A stretch of DNA of 64,000 nt from contig NZ_SESI01000004.1 in NCBI RefSeq assembly GCF_006861655.1, forward strand, positions 1-64,000. The letters run 5' to 3'. A program made the translations under genes and the position numbers. This document shows positions 18,663 through 27,365 of this stretch, piece by piece. Under the pieces are notes generated by a model. That model saw nothing but the letters and a program-made list of their open reading frames with translations, was not told the DNA's origin and ran no database searches. Position 1 is the first letter of the stretch; each line of letters begins with the position of its first letter. The stretch is from Halonotius roseus. GTDB taxonomy: Archaea; Halobacteriota; Halobacteria; Halobacteriales; Haloferacaceae.

Positions 18663-19034
18663 TCAGTCCTCGATCGGGAACGTCTCGTGGAGCACGTCGT
18701 GGGCCTCGCCGAGCCCTGCGAGCACACTGTTTCCCTGGGCGGTGATGCGGTGTACCGCGCGCTCGGCGTCGCGGACGGCGACGAGTCGGCCGCGGAGGTA
18801 GTCGTACTCGGGGTCGTCGCTCGGCGTTTCGGCGACCTCCTCTTCGAGATCGACGAGCGCGGCGTCGAGATGGCGTTCGATCGCGGCCAACGACTCGGCC
18901 TCCGCGAGGGCTTCGATCGGGCCCGCAAGCTCACCTTCCAGCTCCTGTTCGGCGTGTTCTCGGGCGGCGGGATCCTCGGTGCCCAGCACGTTCATCAGTC
19001 CGAGTCGAAGTGCTTCGAGTTCGTAACAACTCAT
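18663..19034 (-). CDS. DUF3209 family protein, cobalamin-cluster associated
   Basis: The product is 123 residues, all helical by appearance, strongly acidic. The start MSCYELEALRLGLMNVLG and the hydrophobic pattern match DUF3209, a family found next to corrin biosynthesis genes in haloarchaea. It marks the left border of the B12 region. Role unknown; a metal-insertion or chaperone role is only guessed from context. A TATA box GATTAAATCC on the opposite strand sits 27 nt upstream of this start. Confidence 0.82.
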   Translation of the reverse strand: MSCYELEALRLGLMNVLGTEDPAAREHAEQELEGELAGPIEALAEAESLAAIERHLDAALVDLEEEVAETPSDDPEYDYLRGRLVAVRDAERAVHRITAQGNSVLAGLGEAHDVLHETFPIED

Positions 19035-19058
19035 AGGCGTTAGTGGGGCAAGCGGGTG

Positions 19059-19066
19059 ATTAAATC
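19059..19066 (-). promoter_or_regulatory. TATA box for DUF3209 gene
   Basis: The minus strand reads GATTTAATC, centred 27 nt before the ATG at 19034. Confidence 0.5.
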
Positions 19067-19139
19067 CAGTGTTTGGTCGGCGTTTGGGTCGCAACAAGAC
19101 ATATGCCGGATCGACTGGAAGCCCGATGTGGTTCTCACA

Positions 19140-19988
19140 ATGGCCCCCTCACTCGACAGCGAGACTCTCCTCTACGTGCTTGGCGTCGCCTTCGCGCTCG
19201 GCACGCTGGCGTTTTTCGCCAGCAGCGTCGCCTTCGATCTCTCGATCACCGTCACGGCCGCGTTGCTGCTGGTGACGTTCGTGGTGTTTTTGATCGCCGG
19301 AATCGCCGTCGACCGCCCACCACTCGATACCATCGCCTTCGCGGTCTCGGGGGTGGCGTACGTGGTCTTTCTCGGCTACGTCGTCTCGCGGTACCGACCC
19401 GACCCGGTGACCGTCTTCGTCCTGCTGGCGGCGTCGGCAGGGCTGTTCGTCGGGCTCGGCTACGCCCTTCAGGAAAACCGACTCACGATCGATCGCCGCA
19501 CGGCGCGAATCGCACTCCTCGGGCTCGCCGCCGTCGGCGTTCTGTTGGTCGGTGCCGACAGCATCGGCGAGGTCGAGTACACCACTGACCTCGACGACGA
19601 GCTCGTGCCCGAAGAGACCACCGCGACCGGGGACGGAACCGTCGTCTTCAACGAACAGCGGGTCGGCACACTCAGTATCGAGAACCCGACGCTGTTTACC
19701 CGCGCCGTCGAGCCGCCGTCGCTGGATGGTTGTCTCGCCGGTGTCGAGACCGACCGCGTCGATGGCGTGGGGTTCTACTACGAGCCGCGGAGCTACCAAC
19801 TCCCCGACCGACTGGGTCGAAGCGAGGAGACGACGGCCGAAATCTACGTGTCGGTTGCACTGCCGGAGAACGTGACCGCACCGGGTGAACCGATCCCGAT
19901 TGAGCGCGCCGAGAGCTGTGGGGTGACGCGCTCGGAACCGACGCTCATCGTCGTTAACGACGAACCAGAACGAGTGCTGCCGCGGTAG
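19140..19988 (+). CDS. Membrane-anchored hypothetical protein with extracytoplasmic domain
   Basis: The product is 282 residues. Five hydrophobic segments occupy the first 150 residues or so (LLYVLGVAFALGTLAFFA, ALLLVTFVVFLIAGIAV, AFAVSGVAYVVFLGYVV, VFVLLAASAGLFVGLGY, IALLGLAAVGVLLVGADS). A soluble C-terminal beta-rich domain follows with TLSIENPTLFTRAVEPP, where two cysteines (DGCLAGV and ESCGVT) could pair. No family recognised. The ATG at 19140 is chosen; the upstream frame is short and atypical. Confidence 0.75.
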   Translation: MAPSLDSETLLYVLGVAFALGTLAFFASSVAFDLSITVTAALLLVTFVVFLIAGIAVDRPPLDTIAFAVSGVAYVVFLGYVVSRYRPDPVTVFVLLAASAGLFVGLGYALQENRLTIDRRTARIALLGLAAVGVLLVGADSIGEVEYTTDLDDELVPEETTATGDGTVVFNEQRVGTLSIENPTLFTRAVEPPSLDGCLAGVETDRVDGVGFYYEPRSYQLPDRLGRSEETTAEIYVSVALPENVTAPGEPIPIERAESCGVTRSEPTLIVVNDEPERVLPR

Positions 19989-20021: not shown

Positions 20022-21242
20022 CTACAGCGTCTGATCGACCAGATCGCTGACGATGCGTTCGCGGTCGAGATGCGAGGAGACGATGCGTTCGGCGTCGTCG
20101 GCTTCGACGCCGCCGTACCAGACGTTTTCGGGGTAGACGGCGACCATCGGCCCCTCGTCACAGCGGTTGAGACACGAGGTACGGGTGATCCGGGCGTCGC
20201 ACTGCTCGGAGTCGCGGGCTGCTTGCCGCAAGCGTTCGAGGACGGCCGGCGCGCCGTTGGCTGCACAGGATTGGTTGGTACAGACGGCGACGTGTTTGGC
20301 GGGGGCGTCGTGGGTGTGTGGCTCATCGTCGATGTCGCTGCGGTCGGCGTGTGTCTCCTGATGGGTCAGCGCGCGCAGCATCGCTCGCGCGCCGCCGGTG
20401 TCTTCCTCGTAGCCGGTGAGATCGACCTTGTACTTGCAGGTGTCACAGGACATTTCGACACTATCCGTCCGGGCCTCCTGCCAGCGGTCGCCGAGCACGT
20501 CCAGCAGCCGCGAGTCGGTGCCAAGGGGGTCGCCAGCGAGGGCGTCGACGTAGGGGTACTCGTCGTCGAACTCGTCAGTCCACTCCCGAATTCGGCCGGT
20601 CAGCACGCCGTCGCCGAGCATGTACGGGACGACGACGACGGCGTCGGGTCGCTGTTTGGCGAGTGTCGACAGGGAGTCGTCCAGCGTCGGCTCCGTGATG
20701 CCGATGAACGAGGCTTCGACAGTGCTGAACGCCCGGCCCTCGTGGAGCAGCCGCGAGAGCTTGTGCAGGTCGGCGTTGGCGTCGGGATCGCTGGAGCCGC
20801 GGCCGCAGACGACGACCGCGATATCGTCCTCCTCGCGGTCGACGCCGAGTTCCGCCTCGACTGCGGCCGCGCGATCGTCGAGCAGATCGACGATGGCGGG
20901 GTGAATCCCGAGATGCGCGCCGTTGTTGATTTCTACTTCATGCGTCGAGCGGGCGCGCTGGACGGCCAGCGGCACGTCGTTTTTGACGTGACTGGCCGCA
21001 AACAGCGAGAGTTGGACGACCGTGACCGAATCGACCGCGCCCGCCAGGCCCTCGATGCCGTCCTCGATGGCTGGCTCGGCGAGTTCGAGGAACGCCGCAT
21101 CAACTGGGATCTCCAGGCGGTCTTCGAGCATCGCCGCCAACTCCCGAACCTGCTCGTTGGACTTCTCGCGGCGGGAGCCGTGGCCGACCAGCAGGACGGC
21201 CTCGTTGTCGACGCTCTCGATGGTGTCGTGGAGTTGGCTCAT
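20022..21242 (-). CDS. cbiX: Sirohydrochlorin cobaltochelatase CbiX with C-terminal 2Fe-2S domain
   Basis: The product is 406 residues with three parts. An N-terminal chelatase half (VLLVGHGSRREKSNEQVREL) and a second chelatase half (VVVCGRGSSDPDANADLHKL) give a duplicated CbiX. Next comes MSCDTCKYKVDL, an MxCxxC motif as in long CbiX proteins. Last is a thioredoxin-like ferredoxin (CTNQSCAANGAP, TRTSCLNRCDEGP). It inserts cobalt into sirohydrochlorin, the early step of the anaerobic route. Last gene of the cbi operon, overlapping the preceding gene (ATGA). Confidence 0.92.
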   Translation of the reverse strand: MSQLHDTIESVDNEAVLLVGHGSRREKSNEQVRELAAMLEDRLEIPVDAAFLELAEPAIEDGIEGLAGAVDSVTVVQLSLFAASHVKNDVPLAVQRARSTHEVEINNGAHLGIHPAIVDLLDDRAAAVEAELGVDREEDDIAVVVCGRGSSDPDANADLHKLSRLLHEGRAFSTVEASFIGITEPTLDDSLSTLAKQRPDAVVVVPYMLGDGVLTGRIREWTDEFDDEYPYVDALAGDPLGTDSRLLDVLGDRWQEARTDSVEMSCDTCKYKVDLTGYEEDTGGARAMLRALTHQETHADRSDIDDEPHTHDAPAKHVAVCTNQSCAANGAPAVLERLRQAARDSEQCDARITRTSCLNRCDEGPMVAVYPENVWYGGVEADDAERIVSSHLDRERIVSDLVDQTL

Positions 21243-21919
21243 GCTTCGAACTGTGAGCGGTCGAACTCGACATCGGTTGCCTGATCGAGACTCTGTACCA
21301 GCTTGCGGCGGCGACTCGGCGCGAACAGGCCCGTATCCTCCGTCTCGTAGAGCCACATCCCGAAGTCGGCGGCTGCGTCGTCGTCGATGCCGAACCAGTA
21401 GCCGCCCGAGGAAGTGTCCGAAAGGTCGCCGTACGGTGCGTCAACCGGCGCGTCGTCGATGAGATCCTGGACGAGTTCGAGCAGTGCGGCGTCGTCGTGG
21501 ACGAACGAGACGCCGACGGTGCCGCTGGAGGATTTGAAGCAGATCGTTCCGCAGCCCTCCAAGATGCCGCGCAGCAGGTCGCGGCGGTAGTCCGCAAATG
21601 CACCAAAACGGTAGTTCCCGCGGCCATCGACCGGGAGGCCGAGCGCGCCGCTCATCCCGAAGAGGTCGTCGCTCGTGACTTCGACCGTGTACTCGTCTTC
21701 CGTTTTGCTGATGTCGGTGTTGTGAGCGTAGTCGCGGGTCGTCTGGTCGTGGTCGATCTCGCTGCCGACGATCTCGCTGAGCGCTTCGGCGGCCGCCTCG
21801 TCGTTGGTCGTCACGGTGAGGCGGTCGTTCTCGATCTCGCCGTTGCCAGCGACGCGGCCCCAGAAGTAGGCCGTCGCGGGGTGGCCTGCCAGCAGGTCGT
21901 CGGGGACGGCAACGCTCAT
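21239..21919 (-). CDS. Cobalamin-operon protein with LAGLIDADG-like fold, apparently inactive
   Basis: The product is 226 residues and soluble. Two segments resemble the paired LAGLIDADG helices of homing endonucleases: residues 15-29 (ATAYFWGRVAGNGEI) and residues 114-128 (DLLRGILEGCGTICF). Each is followed by a beta-strand stretch and a helix, as in the two-repeat fold. The acidic catalytic positions are changed: GDG is GNG in the first and DG is CG in the second. It overlaps ferredoxin and cbiX genes on both sides (ATGA), so it belongs to the B12 pathway. Haloarchaeal genomes often label it only as a cobalamin biosynthesis protein. Function unknown. Confidence 0.75.
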   Translation of the reverse strand: MSVAVPDDLLAGHPATAYFWGRVAGNGEIENDRLTVTTNDEAAAEALSEIVGSEIDHDQTTRDYAHNTDISKTEDEYTVEVTSDDLFGMSGALGLPVDGRGNYRFGAFADYRRDLLRGILEGCGTICFKSSSGTVGVSFVHDDAALLELVQDLIDDAPVDAPYGDLSDTSSGGYWFGIDDDAAADFGMWLYETEDTGLFAPSRRRKLVQSLDQATDVEFDRSQFEA

Positions 21920-22182
21920 CCGTCGACCTCCTCGACGACGATGGCGTTGGTCGGACAGGCCGCCGCAGCCTGCCGGGCCTCCTCGATGCGGTCGTCGTCG
22001 AAGGTGGCGACCACGTCACCGTTTTCCTCTCGAACCTCGCCGTCGCCGTCGTAGACCGGATCGCCGTCGGGGTCAATCGTAGCCAGGCCGTCGTCGTCCT
22101 CGACGAACCGGGGATCGCGGGTGAGACAGGCGAAGATGCCGTCGCAGAGCTGTTTTTTCAGAGTTACTTCGTAGGTTGTCAT
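21916..22182 (-). CDS. Small ferredoxin-like protein of the cobalamin operon
   Basis: The product is 88 residues. The N-terminal KKQLCDGIFACL gives C13 and C19, and AAAACPTNAI gives a third cysteine. This is the one-cluster ferredoxin pattern in which the middle cysteine of CxxCxxC is replaced by isoleucine, so a 3Fe-4S cluster is more likely than 4Fe-4S. An acidic loop rich in D, G and E separates the two halves. It likely supplies electrons to a reductive step in corrin synthesis. It is placed between cbiH and the LAGLIDADG-like gene. Confidence 0.82.
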   Translation of the reverse strand: MTTYEVTLKKQLCDGIFACLTRDPRFVEDDDGLATIDPDGDPVYDGDGEVREENGDVVATFDDDRIEEARQAAAACPTNAIVVEEVDG

Positions 22183-22183
22183 G

Positions 22184-23116
22184 TTAGTAGTCGTACTTGG
22201 TTTCGTAGCCGCGCGGGGTGACCATCCGGTCGTCCCAGACGTATGTCTCCTCGTTGCCGACGAGGATCGTCGTCGTCATGTTGATGATCTCCTCCTCGCC
22301 GAGTTCTTCGAGTTGGTCGAGCGTCGTGATCATGACCTCTTCGTCCTCGCGGCCCGCGCCGTGGACGATGCCGACCGGCGTATCGGGGGCGCGGTGGGCG
22401 AGCAGGATCTCGCAGGCCTTCTCGAAGTTCTCGCGTCGCTTCCGGCTCCAGGGGTTGTAGATGACGATGGTGAAGCTCTCGCCGGCGGCTGAGTGCAGCC
22501 GGGATTCGATCTCCGGCATCGGGACGAGGTGATCGGACAGGGAGATCGACACCGTGTCGTTGACTAGGGGCGCGCCCAGCAGCGCGGAACAGGACTGCGC
22601 GGCGGGGACGCCTGGGACGACCTCGTAATCGACCATCGAAGCGGTCGCACCCTTCGATTCGAGGATTTCGAGGGCGAGCCCCGAGAGGGCATACACGTTG
22701 GGATCGCCGCTGCCGATGATCGCCACGTCGTTGCCAGCGAGCGCGCGGTCGATGGCCTCCTCCGTGCGGGAGACCTCGCCGCACATCGGTGTATCGTAGA
22801 GTTCCTCTGCTTCCTCGGTGATTTCGTCGGGCAGCAACTCGATGTAGGTTGTGTAGCCGACGATGTGTTCGGCCTCCAGCAGCGCGGCACGAGCGCGCTG
22901 GGTCATGCCCTCGGGATGACCGGGGCCAAGACCAACCGCCGTCAGTTGGCCCGGCTCGGCGTCGAAATCGTCGACGGTCGATCCGACCTTCTCATCGACG
23001 GACTGCTGTTTCGACGAGCTGTCGCTGGATTTCGCCGTACAGCCGCCGGCATCGTCGCTCGATTCGCTTGCCTGTTCCGCTGTCGTCTCCGCTGTCGTGT
23101 TGGTGTCCGTACTCAT
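22184..23116 (-). CDS. cbiH: Precorrin-3B C17-methyltransferase CbiH/CobJ (paralogue 2)
   Basis: The product is 310 residues. A 55-residue acidic and serine-rich tail with one cysteine (DAGGCTAKSS) precedes the tetrapyrrole methylase domain, which starts at LTAVGLGPGHPEGMT. Family motifs are IIGSGDPNVYALSG, YEVVPGVPAAQSC and VIYNPWSRKR. It performs C17 methylation with ring contraction, or a variant of it. Its start is two bases after the stop of the other CbiH gene. Confidence 0.9.
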   Translation of the reverse strand: MSTDTNTTAETTAEQASESSDDAGGCTAKSSDSSSKQQSVDEKVGSTVDDFDAEPGQLTAVGLGPGHPEGMTQRARAALLEAEHIVGYTTYIELLPDEITEEAEELYDTPMCGEVSRTEEAIDRALAGNDVAIIGSGDPNVYALSGLALEILESKGATASMVDYEVVPGVPAAQSCSALLGAPLVNDTVSISLSDHLVPMPEIESRLHSAAGESFTIVIYNPWSRKRRENFEKACEILLAHRAPDTPVGIVHGAGREDEEVMITTLDQLEELGEEEIINMTTTILVGNEETYVWDDRMVTPRGYETKYDY

Positions 23117-23118
23117 GG

Positions 23119-23991
23119 TCAGAAATCCTCCACGTCACGCCCGCCGCGCGGGGTGACAAGGAACGTCCGGTAGTCGTTGTCCCACGTCTCCGTCTCGTGG
23201 TTGCCGATGATCAGCGAGGTGCCCATCCCCGACACCTTGTCGTCGTGGGCGGTCGCTTCGCCGAGCGTCGTGATGACGTGGCTCTCGCCGTTGCGGCCGG
23301 CGTCGGCGCGGCCGGCGTCGTTGACGATCGCCACCAAGGCGTCGTCAGTCCGTTCCTCGCGGACGATGTCGACGGCCTTCTCGTAGTTGCGCCAGCAGTT
23401 GTAGAGGACGATGACGAAATCGCTGATGGCTGCGGCGCGTAGTTTCTCCTCGATTTCCTCCCACCCGCGCCACTTGTCCGACAGCGAGATGGTACAGAAA
23501 TCGTTGCACAGCGGCGCGCCGACCATCGCCCCGCCGCCGAGCGCGGCGGTGACGCCGGGGACGATCTCGATTGGGATGTCGGTCGCGTCTTCCTCCTCGG
23601 CCATTTTGAATATCAGGTCGGATTTGCCGTACACGGAGGGGTCGCCACCCGAGACGTGGGCCACGTCGTCGCCGGCGCGAACGCGCTCGAAGGCGACCTT
23701 GGCAAGTTCGATCTGGCGGCCCATCGTCGAGCGGATGATCTCCTGTTCGTGGCCGTTCTCGCGGGTGACACGCCCCTCGTCGTCGACCTGGTCGGCGGGC
23801 GGCAGCGTGCCGTCCTCCCGCAAAAACGCCTGATAGAGGTCGGAGGCGATCACGCAGTCGGCCGTCTCGATGACCTCCTTGGCGCGCTTGGTCATGTCGG
23901 CCGGTAGTCCGGGGCCGATCCCGACGACAGAGAGGGTTCCGAGGTCGTCCGGGCGTTCGGCCGCTGCCGCACTCGCTGATTCGCTGCTCAT
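23119..23991 (-). CDS. cbiH: Precorrin-3B C17-methyltransferase CbiH/CobJ (paralogue 1)
   Basis: The product is 290 residues. The methylase domain begins at LSVVGIGPGLPADMTKRA and shows VSGGDPSVYGKSDLIFKM, IEIVPGVTAALGGG and VLYNCWRNYEK. Compared with the neighbouring paralogue, it has a longer linker around REDGTLPPADQVDDEGR. Two CbiH-like genes side by side suggest one does the canonical C17 methylation and the other has specialised. It overlaps cbiG (ATGA). ATG at 23991 avoids a long upstream extension that is a read-through of cbiG in another frame. Confidence 0.9.
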   Translation of the reverse strand: MSSESASAAAAERPDDLGTLSVVGIGPGLPADMTKRAKEVIETADCVIASDLYQAFLREDGTLPPADQVDDEGRVTRENGHEQEIIRSTMGRQIELAKVAFERVRAGDDVAHVSGGDPSVYGKSDLIFKMAEEEDATDIPIEIVPGVTAALGGGAMVGAPLCNDFCTISLSDKWRGWEEIEEKLRAAAISDFVIVLYNCWRNYEKAVDIVREERTDDALVAIVNDAGRADAGRNGESHVITTLGEATAHDDKVSGMGTSLIIGNHETETWDNDYRTFLVTPRGGRDVEDF

Positions 23992-24989
23992 CGTCCTATC
24001 GCCACCGTCACCTCGTTCTGATAACTCTGCTTTTCGAGCAGGAGTTCTTGGTCGCTGCCGCCGGCGATGGCTGAGGCCTCCGAGATGCCAGGCCAACCGA
24101 TCAATTCCTTGGATTTCGATGGACTCGGGCCCTCGTGCTCCAACAGCGTCTCTTTGTCGAAGGCGACGACGCCGAGATCGAGTTCCTCGGCGGCCTCCAG
24201 CAGTCCCTCCTCGTTTTCTTTTCGCGTCGCCGTGGCGACGAACTCCACGTCGTCCATCTCGTACTCGGTTTCGTCGAGGGCGGTCTCCCAGGCCGCGATG
24301 AAGGAATCGGCTGCCGCGCCGGAGACGCTGCCGGTTCCGAGGACGACGCCGTCGTCTTTGTTCCGCTTGAGGACGGTCACGTCGTCGCCGACCAGCACGG
24401 CCTGCGGGCCGTCGAGGCGGGCGACTGGGCCGAGTTCGTCGTCCAGCACGGCGAGGTTGGTCTGGATCGTCGAGCGGCCGTTGACGACATGGGTGTCCAT
24501 CGCCTTCGCGCGGGCCTCGACGCCTTGCTTGCCGGCCGCTTCCGAGGCTGTCGTCATCGCCGGAATCGCGCCCATCGTGGCGAGGTCTTGGGCAACCTGG
24601 TTCGCGCCGTGGTGCCCGCCAGTGATCGGGATCGCCCAGGTGAGTTCCTCGTCGACGACACAGATGGCGGGATCGTCCCACTTGTCGTCGAGCAGGTGGG
24701 CGGTTTTCCGCATGGCGATGCCGCTGGCCATCAGGCCGATGAAGCAGTCGTACTCGCCCCAGTGCTCGTCGAAGACCTCGCCGTGGTACTCGATGATATC
24801 TATCTGCTCGTAGCGGTCGGCGAGTTCGCTCTCGATCTCTTCGGCCGTATCCATCTTCCGGCCGAAGGAGATGATAGCGATCTCCTCGGCGACCTCCCCG
24901 TCGCTGTCGGGCGTGCTACAGTGGCCGCCGCTGTCGGAGTCGTCGCTCGTGTCGCTGTTCGCCGTCGTAGATTCGTTGTCCGTGCTCAT
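23988..24989 (-). CDS. cbiG: Cobalt-precorrin-5A hydrolase CbiG
   Basis: The product is 333 residues. An N-terminal acidic tail contains DSGGHCSTPD, similar in style to the CbiH paralogue 2 tail. The CbiG core shows GLMASGIAMRKTAHLLDDKW, DEELTWAIPITGGHHGANQ and the C-terminal domain signature VLGTGSVSGAAADSF. It opens the delta-lactone and releases acetaldehyde in the anaerobic pathway. It lies between cbiF and cbiH with start-stop overlaps. Confidence 0.94.
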   Translation of the reverse strand: MSTDNESTTANSDTSDDSDSGGHCSTPDSDGEVAEEIAIISFGRKMDTAEEIESELADRYEQIDIIEYHGEVFDEHWGEYDCFIGLMASGIAMRKTAHLLDDKWDDPAICVVDEELTWAIPITGGHHGANQVAQDLATMGAIPAMTTASEAAGKQGVEARAKAMDTHVVNGRSTIQTNLAVLDDELGPVARLDGPQAVLVGDDVTVLKRNKDDGVVLGTGSVSGAAADSFIAAWETALDETEYEMDDVEFVATATRKENEEGLLEAAEELDLGVVAFDKETLLEHEGPSPSKSKELIGWPGISEASAIAGGSDQELLLEKQSYQNEVTVAIGR

Positions 24990-25912
24990 TGGGTTGTCTC
25001 CGCTGGATCGGTCTGTTCGCTATCCGCCGTCTCACTGCTATCGTCGTCAGCATCATCATCGGGGCCGCGATCCGCCCACCCATCGTACAGGTAGGAACGC
25101 TCGTAGCCCGCGCCGGTCACGGCGTCGCCGATGATCACCATCGCCGAGGCGCGGTAGCCGGCCTCCTCGATCTTCTCGCCAATCGTGCCGATGGTGCCAA
25201 CGATCACGTCCTCGTCGGGCCAGGAGGCGTGGTAGACGACCGCGACCGGAATCTCGGGGTCGTGGCCGTCGTCGATGAGCCGATCCATCGTGTCGGCGAC
25301 GGCGTGGGTACCGAGGTAGATACAGGTCGTCACGTCGCCCATCTCGACGAATTCGCCGATGTGATCGTCCTCCTCGGTCAGCGTCTTGCCCTGCGGGCGG
25401 GTGAAGGCGACGTGGTTCGAGACCTCGTTGAGCGTGAGTTGGGTTCGGAGGGTCGCGCTCGCTGCGAAGGCTGAGGTGACGCCCGGGACGAAGTAGGTGG
25501 GGACGCCTTCGTGTTCGAGGGCGTCCATCTGTTCGAGCGCCGCGCCGTAGATCGCGGGATCGCCGCTGTGGAGCCGGACGACGTTGTCGCCGTCCTCGTG
25601 GGCGTCCCGCATGAGCGGGATCAGCTCTTCGAGATCCTTGCCGATGGATGAAACCGTCTCGGCGTGGTCGCAGTACTCCTCAAGGAGTTCGCTGTTGACC
25701 AGCGAGCCGGCGTGGACGACGAGGTCGGCCTCTTCCAGCAGTTCCTTGCCGGCGACGGTCAGCAGGCGTGGGTCGCCAGGGCCAGCACCGACGAAGGGGA
25801 TACCCTCCTGCTCGTCGCCAGCGTTGTGCTCGAAGATCCGGTCGTCGAGTTCGGCGCGTCGCTGCTCGCCTTGGGCGTCGATGGCGGATTGGGGGTCGGT
25901 TTCGTCGCTCAT
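24986..25912 (-). CDS. cbiF: Cobalt-precorrin-4 C11-methyltransferase CbiF
   Basis: The product is 308 residues. The methylase domain starts at IPFVGAGPGDPRLLTVAG, followed by VHAGSLVNSELLEEY, RLHSGDPAIYGAALEQMD, VPGVTSAFAASA and FTRPQGKTL, all typical of CbiF/CobM. Both ends are acidic tails, the C-terminal one ending in a stretch of D, S and E. It adds the C11 methyl group. Overlaps cbiL upstream and cbiG downstream (ATGA both). Confidence 0.94.
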   Translation of the reverse strand: MSDETDPQSAIDAQGEQRRAELDDRIFEHNAGDEQEGIPFVGAGPGDPRLLTVAGKELLEEADLVVHAGSLVNSELLEEYCDHAETVSSIGKDLEELIPLMRDAHEDGDNVVRLHSGDPAIYGAALEQMDALEHEGVPTYFVPGVTSAFAASATLRTQLTLNEVSNHVAFTRPQGKTLTEEDDHIGEFVEMGDVTTCIYLGTHAVADTMDRLIDDGHDPEIPVAVVYHASWPDEDVIVGTIGTIGEKIEEAGYRASAMVIIGDAVTGAGYERSYLYDGWADRGPDDDADDDSSETADSEQTDPAETTQ

Positions 25913-26637
25913 GCTTCCCCCTCCTCGCTGGCGTCGGTCGCCGACTCGTCGCTGGCGTCGAACTGCGCGGTCGCCGGTTCGATGTCCAGATCGCGTTTCA
26001 CCGCGTAGGCGAGGGTGTAGTAGTCGCGCTCGTCGATCTCGCTGGGCTCGTCGGTAATGACCGTCTCGCCTTGCTCCATGTAGAGCCGGCGGCCGTAGGT
26101 CACGTCGTAGCCGGCGTCGATGAGACCTTCGTGGGTCGCCGGCGCGTCGGTGACTTTGAAGAGGATCATCCGGTCGGGGCCGGTCGGCGCGTGGCCGTTG
26201 GCGGCCTCCCGCAGCGCGAGGCCCGCGCCGGCCTCGATTTCGACGTCCAGCGCGGTCGCAAACGCCGTCATCGCGCTGACGCCAGGCACGATCTCGACGT
26301 CCACATCGGGGTGGAACGCGTCAAGCGTCCGTCGCAGGTGCCCGAACGTCGAGTAGACGTTCGGGTCGCCGAGCGTGACGAAGGCGGCGTCGCCATCGCG
26401 GGCCTGCGGCGCGATCTCTGCGGCGGCCGTTTTCCACGCCGCCCGTAGCTTCTCCTCGTCGCGGGTCATCGGGAAGTCGAGATCGCCGATCTTCGACTCC
26501 TCGACGTGGTTCAGCGCGACCGTCCGCGAGAGGCGGCCTGGCGAATAGACCACGTCAACCGACTCCAGTACCTCCTTGCCGCGCACTGTCACCAGATCGG
26601 CCTGTCCGGGGCCGAGGCCGATACCGTAGAGCGTCAC
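25909..26637 (-). CDS. cbiL: Precorrin-2 C20-methyltransferase CbiL
   Basis: The product is 242 residues. Typical features are YGIGLGPGQADLVTVRG at the N terminus, VTLGDPNVYSTFGHLRR in the substrate loop and IVPGVSAMTAFATALDV. It methylates C20 of precorrin-2 or its cobalt form. The start is a GTG that overlaps the cbiT stop (GTGA). The C-terminal 20 residues are an acidic tail. Confidence 0.93.
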   Translation of the reverse strand: MTLYGIGLGPGQADLVTVRGKEVLESVDVVYSPGRLSRTVALNHVEESKIGDLDFPMTRDEEKLRAAWKTAAAEIAPQARDGDAAFVTLGDPNVYSTFGHLRRTLDAFHPDVDVEIVPGVSAMTAFATALDVEIEAGAGLALREAANGHAPTGPDRMILFKVTDAPATHEGLIDAGYDVTYGRRLYMEQGETVITDEPSEIDERDYYTLAYAVKRDLDIEPATAQFDASDESATDASEEGEA

Positions 26638-27242
26638 TGTGTCGCCTCCGCTCGTTCGCCGTCGTCAGCGTCGCTGTCGCCGTCGCCCTCGTCGTCGCTT
26701 GCACTGCCGACCAGCATGTAGACCGGGTTGTCGGAATTGAAGCTCGTCGCGCCGGCGAGTTCGTAGCCGTGGCTGACCTGGAACTGGACGACTTCCTCCA
26801 AGATGTCGCGCTCGCGGAACGCTTCGGTCGCGCGGCCGGCGACCTCCAGCCGTGAGACGTTCATCACGATCCGGTCGATTTCGGTGTCGACGGCGTGGTC
26901 GAGCACGGCTTCGAAGTTCCGGCTGCCGCCGAGAAAGAGGGCGTCGGCGTCGTCGGGCAGCCCCTCGGGTGCTTCGGCGTTCCGCAACTCGACGTCGGCG
27001 GTGACCGTCTCCTCGTTGGCCGCGAGGTTTTGCTCGGTCACGTCTAGGCGGTCGGCCTTGCGTTCGAGGGCGGTCACGCGGCCGGCCCGTCGGGCGGCCT
27101 CGATGGTGACCGCGCCGGTACAGGAGCCGACCTCCGCGAAGAGGTCGTCCGGGCCGAGGTCGAGTTTGCCGAGCAGCACCGACCGTACTTCCGACTTGGT
27201 CGGCCCCGCTTTGGCGTCGTGTGGCAGTGCGATGGGCATCAT
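26634..27242 (-). CDS. cbiT: Cobalt-precorrin-6B C15-methyltransferase (decarboxylating) CbiT
   Basis: The product is 202 residues. The SAM-binding motif FAEVGSCTGAVTIEAAR replaces the usual GxGxG with GSCTG, as is common in CbiT, and is followed by LERKADRLDVTEQNL and ALFLGGSRNFEAVLD. The N terminus MPIALPHDAKAGPTKSEVR carries the family GPTK element. It is the first gene of the operon. A TATA box 25 nt upstream of ATG 27242 indicates a leaderless mRNA; a second ATG follows directly at 27239. Confidence 0.93.
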   Translation of the reverse strand: MMPIALPHDAKAGPTKSEVRSVLLGKLDLGPDDLFAEVGSCTGAVTIEAARRAGRVTALERKADRLDVTEQNLAANEETVTADVELRNAEAPEGLPDDADALFLGGSRNFEAVLDHAVDTEIDRIVMNVSRLEVAGRATEAFRERDILEEVVQFQVSHGYELAGATSFNSDNPVYMLVGSASDDEGDGDSDADDGERAEATQ

Positions 27243-27261
27243 CACGTCTCTCAAACCGGAT

Positions 27262-27270
27262 CGATAAAAC
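27262..27270 (-). promoter_or_regulatory. TATA box of the cbiT-cbiX operon
   Basis: The minus strand reads GTTTTATCG, centred about 25 nt before the ATG of cbiT. It is the only promoter seen for the nine-gene operon. Confidence 0.6.
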
Positions 27271-27365
27271 AATTTTGCTTGGGGTAGCGAAAGTTCGCTT
27301 GTATACGATATCGAAGTCAAATTAATCAGCACAAGATTGATTCCAGAGTGTAAGAATGTTCGAGT

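What the first reader, a model, noticed from the sequence alone, without database searches (positions are those of the whole stretch)
21239..21919. Domesticated LAGLIDADG-like protein inside the vitamin B12 operon
The 226-residue protein has two segments resembling the paired LAGLIDADG helices of homing endonucleases (residues 15-29 and 114-128), each followed by a strand-rich stretch. Both catalytic acidic positions are lost (GDG to GNG, DG to CG). It is translationally coupled to a ferredoxin gene and cbiX in a nine-gene corrin operon. No CbiJ/CobK reductase or CbiD is seen in the window, so this protein with the ferredoxin could fill a pathway gap or act as a scaffold. WhiA shows that LAGLIDADG folds can be recruited to non-nuclease roles.
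Basis: partly seen in the sequence, partly recalled or inferred. Interest (0 to 1): 0.75.

Follow-up and report, generated by a model that had tools for sequence, protein, structure and literature searches.

The report
B12-operon protein with homing-endonuclease fold
In most of the examined salt-loving archaea that carry vitamin-B12-synthesis genes, the genome also encodes a protein that is predicted to fold like a DNA-cutting homing endonuclease, lacks in this window both of that enzyme's acidic cutting residues, and likely helps the neighbouring enzyme load cobalt into the vitamin.

Summary

The gap-filling idea is disfavoured. The protein occurs in 199 of 207 genomes with CbiG or CbiX and in 0 of 115 without CbiG. 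The eight genomes lacking it keep cbiT, L, F, G, H1 and H2; four of them were searched for CbiJ and CbiD and lack both. All eight have a CbiX with a histidine-rich tail; protein-positive genomes have a 2Fe-2S-extended CbiX with few tail histidines, one known exception (G495). In one genome a His-tailed CbiX fills the lost gene's slot. I propose a cobalt-handling partner of CbiX (confidence 0.38). Its gap candidacy was published in 2021; the fold was not found in print.

The parts
21239..21919 (-). the LAGLIDADG-fold protein (226 aa), called LAG here
   Evidence: 109 of 110 loci (window's own included) have the order cbiH2-ferredoxin-LAG-cbiX
21842..21880 (-). codons 14-26, first LAGLIDADG helix; N26 at the acid position
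   Evidence: secondary structure; column counts; register with the motif assigned by eye
21551..21607 (-). codons 105-123, second LAGLIDADG helix; C123 at the acid position
   Evidence: PF14528 best match covers this repeat in 8 of 10 relatives scanned
21539..21541 (-). codon of Cys127, invariant
   Evidence: 201 of 201 and 71 of 71 including divergent members
21916..22182 (-). ferredoxin gene (Fer4_15, 88 aa), overlaps LAG by ATGA
   Evidence: PF13459 E 6.5e-15
20022..21242 (-). cbiX cobaltochelatase, long form (406 aa), overlaps LAG by ATGA
   Evidence: PF01903 E 2.2e-47
20076..20303 (-). C-terminal 2Fe-2S thioredoxin-like extension of CbiX (about residues 314-389)
   Evidence: PF01257 E 4.3e-7; missing from the cluster-type CbiX of seven LAG-negative genomes; G052 has one copy with and one without
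22184..23116 (-). cbiH2
   Evidence: TIGR01466 over its cut-off
23119..23892 (-). cbiH1 (fragment used here; true start lies somewhat upstream)
   Evidence: TIGR01466 E 8.6e-51, below its cut-off
23988..24989 (-). cbiG
   Evidence: NF004465 over its cut-off
24986..25912 (-). cbiF
   Evidence: TIGR01465 E 6.7e-74, just under its cut-off
25909..26637 (-). cbiL
   Evidence: NF004063 over its cut-off
26634..27332 (-). cbiT (annotated ORF; real start probably downstream, at MMPIALPHDAKAG)
   Evidence: TIGR02469 over its cut-off
27267..27280 (-). conserved near-palindromic promoter element AAGCAAAATTGTTT of the cbi operon
18663..19034 (-). DUF3209 gene, companion of the long-form CbiX module
   Evidence: PF11483 E 4.7e-53; 71 of 72 LAG-positive loci of at least 17 kb

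Best explanation
The 226-residue protein, predicted to adopt the two-repeat LAGLIDADG fold and lacking both of the endonuclease's acidic residues, likely acts as a cobalt-handling partner of CbiX, the cobaltochelatase encoded by the next gene. Inferred mechanism: the old metal site at the end of the paired helices was rebuilt around Cys127 (with Cys123, Glu121, perhaps His66) so that it would hold Co(II) or the tetrapyrrole and pass it to CbiX. In relatives that lack the protein, CbiX carries a histidine-rich tail that could do this job in cis. The ferredoxin and the 2Fe-2S extension of CbiX would serve the same step as electron suppliers. Shown by calls: sequence, gene order, absence of the acids in this protein, invariant residues, co-occurrence, CbiX tail pattern. 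Predicted: the fold. Inferred and untested: metal or tetrapyrrole binding, hand-over, contact with CbiX.
For: Fixed slot between ferredoxin and cbiX in 109 of 110 loci (the window's own and some genomes twice are among them). Present in 123 of 127 CbiG-positive genomes and 76 of 80 further CbiX-positive ones, and in 0 of 115 CbiG-negative ones. All 8 LAG-negative genomes have a CbiX with a histidine-rich tail: 12-40 His counted after the MxCxxC motif in seven, the eighth (L136, motif changed to MPCDTC) read by eye. In the named LAG-positive loci 77 of 80 CbiX rows (79 loci) have the motif and all 77 have 5-8 His; 3 rows lack it. In G052, whose contig length equals that of Natronobacterium gregoryi, LAG is lost and a short His-tailed CbiX stands in its slot; the tree nests it among LAG-positive clusters. 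In G021 LAG has moved between Cation_efflux transporter genes and a rhodanese gene. C127 and E121 are invariant, 71 of 71 each. A review says the B. [quoted passage not shown]
Against: G495 has LAG together with a CbiX carrying 26 tail histidines and no 2Fe-2S extension, so the exchange is not strict. Seven of the eight LAG-negative clusters form one clade (FastTree, midpoint root), so the pattern rests on two or three events, not eight. The review states that deleting the B. megaterium tail does not affect cobalt insertion, so a missing tail need not call for a helper. C127 is the only invariant Cys (C123 is T in one of 71), and no coordinates were available to test a metal site. G014 and G437 keep LAG with no ferredoxin match in the fetched 20 kb, so the ferredoxin link is loose. 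The 80 named loci were fetched with patterns that include EGCGT[IV]CF, which biases C123/C127 counts there; the 120 protein hits are free of that bias.
Confidence: 0.38

Rival explanations
1. LAG is a redox or oxygen-protection accessory: with the ferredoxin and the 2Fe-2S CbiX it would let aerobic haloarchaea run an oxygen-sensitive cobalt-early pathway, the Cys127/Cys123 pair being a thiol switch or electron relay.
For: Ferredoxin, LAG, 2Fe-2S extension and DUF3209 usually travel together and were not found in the seven LAG-negative clade loci. That clade includes genomes near Halodesulfurarchaeum, described as obligately anaerobic (PMC5437934, passages), and one whose length equals Halalkaliarchaeum desulfuricum AArc-Sl, a sulfur reducer (PMC6176080, passages).
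Against: AArc-Sl can also grow aerobically. Natrarchaeobaculum sulfurireducens has LAG (P0085); I recall it as the facultative anaerobe AArc1 of that paper. No physiology was found for Salinarchaeum sp. IM2453 and none was read for Halorhabdus. N. gregoryi, recalled as an aerobe, lacks LAG by contig-length identity. C123 is not invariant.
Confidence: 0.22
2. LAG is a DNA-binding regulator of the cob/cbi genes, a WhiA-like use of the fold, perhaps the unknown second activator inferred for this regulon in Halobacterium salinarum.
For: The relatives of the fold that I recall act on nucleic acids; WhiA is a close structural match. A TrmB-dependent second activator of cob/cbi genes was inferred by modelling (PMC3794607, passages). 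A conserved near-palindrome lies in the cbi promoter.
Against: The element scores 10 or more of 12 in 6 of 7 LAG-negative clade loci and in the G052 locus as well as in 65 of 67 LAG-positive ones (the motif was derived from 50 of those 67), so it does not need LAG. No HTH family. Strand residues carry a mean net charge of -3.5 over 71 sequences, and (K+R)/(D+E) is 0.33 in the window protein and 0.5 in G021's LAG against 0.59-0.69 in four intein segments of G021 that I delimited. The gene is eighth of nine in its own operon.
Confidence: 0.17
3. LAG with the ferredoxin replaces CbiJ (reductase) or CbiD (C1 methyltransferase), as the first reader proposed and as the 2021 curation paper allows for the unassigned cluster genes.
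For: CbiD 0 of 242 and CbiJ 0 of 242 over cut-off in haloarchaea; four genes of the cluster without assigned function, among them HVO_B0055 and HVO_B0056, are called obvious candidates (PMC8305020, passages).
Against: Eight cbi-positive genomes lack LAG, and the four of them searched lack CbiJ and CbiD as well; seven of the eight also show no such ferredoxin in the fetched stretch. No reductase or methyltransferase family for this protein: 0 Pfam, 0 NCBIfam. CbiH1 is present in both groups and fits the CbiD role better. CbiJ is also not rung in the Sulfolobus, Methanosarcina and Thermus controls that ring for CbiD and CbiG, so its absence is no haloarchaeal peculiarity.
Confidence: 0.12

Closest known systems
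LAGLIDADG homing endonucleases (I-DmoI, PI-PfuI, I-Tsp061I)
   Different: Second acid is Cys (Ser or Thr in rare members), first acid variable; free-standing operon gene; near-universal in cbi-positive genomes instead of sporadic.
WhiA (DUF199)
   Different: No helix-turn-helix or WhiA Pfam match; archaeal, within a metabolic operon.
CobW cobalt metallochaperone (aerobic B12 pathway)
   Same: Proposed role only: supplying Co(II) to a cobaltochelatase; usually encoded beside it; thiol ligands in CobW (PMC7689651, passages).
   Different: CobW is a P-loop GTPase with a CxCC motif; LAG has neither. Not a member.
HVO_B0055-type unassigned cobalamin-cluster proteins
   Same: Very likely the Haloferax member of this family: HVO_B0054 is cbiX1 and HVO_B0057 is cbiH2 in the paper's table, and in Haloferax loci the order is cbiH2, ferredoxin, LAG, cbiX (L086, L091, L097).
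   Different: The passages read list it as unassigned, with no fold; LAGLIDADG does not occur in the paper's main text (supplement not read). The locus-tag match is by gene order; the sequence of HVO_B0055 itself was not fetched.

Membership tests
LAGLIDADG fold (superfamily) | two alpha-beta-beta-alpha-beta-beta repeats with paired motif helices | tested here: met
LAGLIDADG homing endonuclease | acidic metal-binding residue at the end of each motif helix | tested here: not met
   N26 and C123; position 123 never acidic in 201 sequences or 71 including divergent ones
LAGLIDADG homing endonuclease | resides in an intron, intein or as a mobile gene with sporadic occurrence | tested here: not met
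   109 of 110 loci in the same slot; 199 of 207 cbi-positive genomes; no relative in viral contigs
LAGLIDADG homing endonuclease | DNA cleavage activity | not testable with these tools
   needs purified protein
WhiA | LAGLIDADG domain followed by a helix-turn-helix domain | tested here: not met
   226 aa, 0 Pfam families at E<=1; model ends in short helices
CbiJ/CobK precorrin-6A reductase | match to PF02571 | tested here: not met
   0 Pfam families for the protein; 0 of 242 haloarchaeal genomes over the cut-off, one weak hit in G194
CbiD | match to PF01888 | tested here: not met
   0 of 242
CobW / COG0523 GTPase | P-loop GTPase domain and CxCC motif | tested here: not met
   no Pfam match; motifs absent by reading the sequence
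Pfam PF26411 | match to the family model | tested here: inconclusive
   precomputed PF26411.1 on the 120 listed homologues, but the model is not in the library here, so its name and score are unknown

The most novel reading that the evidence does not exclude
A homing-endonuclease fold that has left nucleic acids altogether: a domesticated LAGLIDADG protein whose catalytic site was rebuilt with cysteine into a cobalt (or cobalt-tetrapyrrole) hand-over site, serving a cobaltochelatase that has given up its own histidine-rich tail.
Probability: 0.33. Interest if true: 0.82.

Novelty: new variant of a known kind. Interest (0 to 1): 0.62.

Why it matters
The haloarchaeal B12 pathway has two published unassigned steps and four unassigned cluster genes (PMC8305020, passages). 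Placing one of these genes in the LAGLIDADG fold, showing that it tracks the B12 genes almost perfectly, and linking its absence to a His-tailed CbiX turns a vague gap candidate into a testable cobalt-insertion factor. It would also be, as far as I recall, the first LAGLIDADG-fold protein with a role away from DNA or RNA.

Tried and rejected
Sequence search of the PDB with the protein (0 matches) and with the 62-row profile (three chance-level matches, none a LAGLIDADG protein, best E 0.25): the fold shows through structure and Pfam LAGLIDADG_3 only. The window protein itself and G021's LAG have no LAGLIDADG Pfam match. NCBIfam gave nothing consistent over 62 members. Viral contigs hold no confirmed relative; the fold search in viral structures returns among its named hits endonucleases and intein-bearing proteins.

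The strict rule 'LAG present = long CbiX, LAG absent = short CbiX' was rejected after G495 (LAG with a His-tailed CbiX). Two other apparent exceptions had other causes: in G501 CbiX is cut by a contig end, in G500 it lies in three pieces that together reach residue 405. 'Anaerobes lack it' was rejected as a sole explanation (rival 1). The idea that the cbi promoter element is LAG's own site was rejected because LAG-negative clusters carry it too. No occurrence outside Halobacteria was seen: 10 of 148 phylum genomes match, all ten of the own order.

Rows dropped: 4 of 84 new CbiX-positive genomes (G433, G477, G486, G512) were left out because of the 80-handle limit, chosen for low completeness. 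One search examined 64 of the 127 CbiG-positive genomes; one search printed alignment ranges for only part of its 211 matching genomes, so for the rest full length is judged from E-values. One search checked CbiG in 7 of the 80 genomes. One search thinned 67 upstream regions to 50. One search counted DUF3209 in the 72 of 80 named loci of at least 17 kb. CbiX tail rows include a few loci of the same genome.

Full report
WHAT IS THERE. The finding lies on the minus strand of the window. The 226-residue ORF overlaps the ferredoxin stop and the cbiX start by ATGA. Family searches support the order cbiT, cbiL, cbiF, cbiG, cbiH1, cbiH2, ferredoxin (Fer4_15), this protein (called LAG below), cbiX. 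LAG itself matches no Pfam or NCBIfam model in the libraries here. Of its homologues 712 pass E 1e-3 and 120 are listed. Where a source names them it is mostly 'cobalamin biosynthesis protein', 'cobalamin operon protein' or 'hypothetical protein', and once 'LAGLIDADG family homing endonuclease' (P0118). The top hit is 94% identical, from Halonotius terrestris. The listed homologues carry PF26411.1 in precomputed data; that model is not available here.

ACTIVE SITE. In the window protein the two acid positions are N26 and C123. In 201 aligned sequences (window 1, named loci 80, protein hits 120, overlapping) position 26 is S 141, D 28, N 21, G 9, H 1, A 1; position 123 is C 199, S 2; C127 and E121 are 201 of 201 each. 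In 71 sequences, the 62 of the alignment plus nine from further genomes including the most divergent, 15 residues are invariant: A17 Y18 W20 G21 R117 G118 E121 G124 C127 G136 S138 W175 F176 Y191 K206; C123 is 70 of 71 (T in one) and H66 70 of 71. The strand after helix 2 would show T125, C127 and K129 on one face (inferred by alternation; no coordinates were available). Nuclease activity is therefore unlikely, and the old catalytic corner is conserved around thiols, not acids.

DISTRIBUTION. In 242 haloarchaeal genomes LAG occurs in 123 and CbiG in 127; all 123 LAG genomes are among the 127, so none of the 115 CbiG-negative genomes has LAG. CbiJ exceeds its cut-off in 0 of 242 (one weak hit, G194) and CbiD in 0 of 242; the same models ring in 3 and 6 of 14 control genomes. 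A second draw of 391 found CbiX in 211, 84 of them new; 80 of the 84 were searched and 76 have LAG. In total 199 of 207, where 127 are defined by CbiG and 80 by CbiX. The eight without LAG are G001, G007, G129, G052, G441, G483, G392 and G442, each listed at 98% completeness or more; CbiG is present in all eight. CbiJ and CbiD were searched in G001, G007, G129 and G052 only, not in the other four.

CONTEXT. In 109 of 110 LAG loci the order is cbiH2-ferredoxin-LAG-cbiX; in the other, L033, cbiH1 and cbiX are truncated and no separate cbiH2 match was kept. In 60 of 60 LAG-positive genomes examined CbiX is the long form reaching residue 403-406. In one search the remaining LAG-positive genomes have E-values of 2.5e-174 or better, as expected for full length, except G495, G501 and G500, which were looked at singly. 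The LAG-negative genomes have CbiX matches ending at residue 311-318 of the query, with tails of 12-40 histidines in the seven whose motif was found; the eighth, G442 (L136), also ends in a His-rich tail by eye. In the named LAG-positive loci 77 of 80 CbiX rows have the motif, each with 5-8 histidines; of the three others two are cut or broken and one is a second reading frame of L098. G495 has 26. G052 keeps ferredoxin, long CbiX and DUF3209, and has a short His-tailed CbiX (L114 12703-13644) exactly where LAG should be. DUF3209 is in 71 of 72 LAG-positive loci of at least 17 kb; it was not found in the seven LAG-negative clade loci nor in the 3.9 kb around CbiX of G441 and G483, where CbiX lies apart from the cluster. 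A tree of CbiF, CbiG, CbiH1 and CbiH2 from 43 loci puts the seven other LAG-negative clusters in one clade (local support 1.0, midpoint root) and G052 inside the LAG-positive part. So the history is best read as one gain or one deep loss, one later loss in G052, and one relocation in G021, where LAG lies between two Cation_efflux genes and beside a rhodanese gene while CbiX and DUF3209 sit elsewhere.

WHAT IT DOES. Three facts point to cobalt insertion: the fixed place before cbiX; the replacement of LAG by a His-tailed CbiX in G052 with His tails in all other LAG-negative genomes; and the metal-transporter surroundings in G021. [quoted passage not shown] LAG could be the trans-acting equivalent. 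This is inference; metal binding was not tested. Against it stand G495, the reported dispensability of the tail, and the small number of independent events.

WHAT IT PROBABLY DOES NOT DO. The CbiJ/CbiD role is disfavoured because LAG-negative clusters keep cbiT, L, F, G, H1 and H2 and, where searched, have no CbiJ or CbiD. This needs those organisms to make B12 de novo, which is likely from their gene sets but not shown. LAG is thus not needed to explain it. TrmB control and an unknown second activator of cob/cbi genes in Halobacterium salinarum are published (PMC3794607, passages), so the rival stays open.

RELATION TO THE LITERATURE. The missing CbiD and CbiJ in Halonotius are published (PMC6719526, passage). 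The four unassigned genes of the Haloferax cluster, listed as HVO_B0052, B0053, B0055 and B0056, their conserved synteny and their candidacy for the two gaps are published (PMC8305020, passages; supplement not read). Searches found one paper with HVO_B0055 and none with both LAGLIDADG and 'cobalamin biosynthesis' in the open-licence library; subscription papers and preprints are not covered. For the CbiX-tail relation only a listing was seen, so its absence from print is not claimed. The points added here are the fold, the rebuilt site, the co-occurrence numbers and the CbiX-tail relation.

Noticed in passing
window 27267-27280, minus strand; 65 of 67 LAG-positive cbi loci: A 14-base near-palindrome AARCAAAATTGTTT sits just upstream of cbiT across cbi-positive haloarchaea, LAG-positive and LAG-negative alike; probably the operator or promoter core of the B12 regulon.
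   Followed up: partly
window 18663-19034, minus strand: A DUF3209 gene follows cbiX in nearly all long-CbiX clusters and was not found in the His-tailed-CbiX clade; it looks like one of the other unassigned cobalamin-cluster proteins.
   Followed up: partly
   Followed up: yes
L137 5394-6812: G495 carries LAG and ferredoxin but a CbiX with a long His-rich tail and no 2Fe-2S extension.
   Followed up: partly
L117 8445-11454: In the divergent genome G021 LAG is unlinked from the cbi cluster and lies between two CDF metal transporter genes, next to a rhodanese gene.
   Followed up: partly
window 23119-23892 and the eight LAG-negative clusters: cbiH1, the second cbiH paralogue, is present in both cluster types, which fits its published candidacy for the CbiD step.
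   Followed up: no
L118 and L140 (genomes G014, G437): Clusters with LAG carrying an insert between its halves, no ferredoxin match, and a strongly diverged CbiG; G014 has a second CbiG elsewhere.
   Followed up: no
L120 (G184) and L143-L150 (G500): LAG in G184 and CbiX in G500 appear split into pieces; assembly error or decay not distinguished.
   Followed up: no
window 26634-27332: The annotated GTG start of cbiT lies upstream of the promoter element; the real start is probably the ATG at MMPIALPHDAKAG.
   Followed up: no
window 19056-19988, plus strand: An opposite-strand 310-residue protein (weak DUF6350 match, E 0.0058) separates cbiX from DUF3209 here; found in only 1 of 72 named loci.
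   Followed up: no
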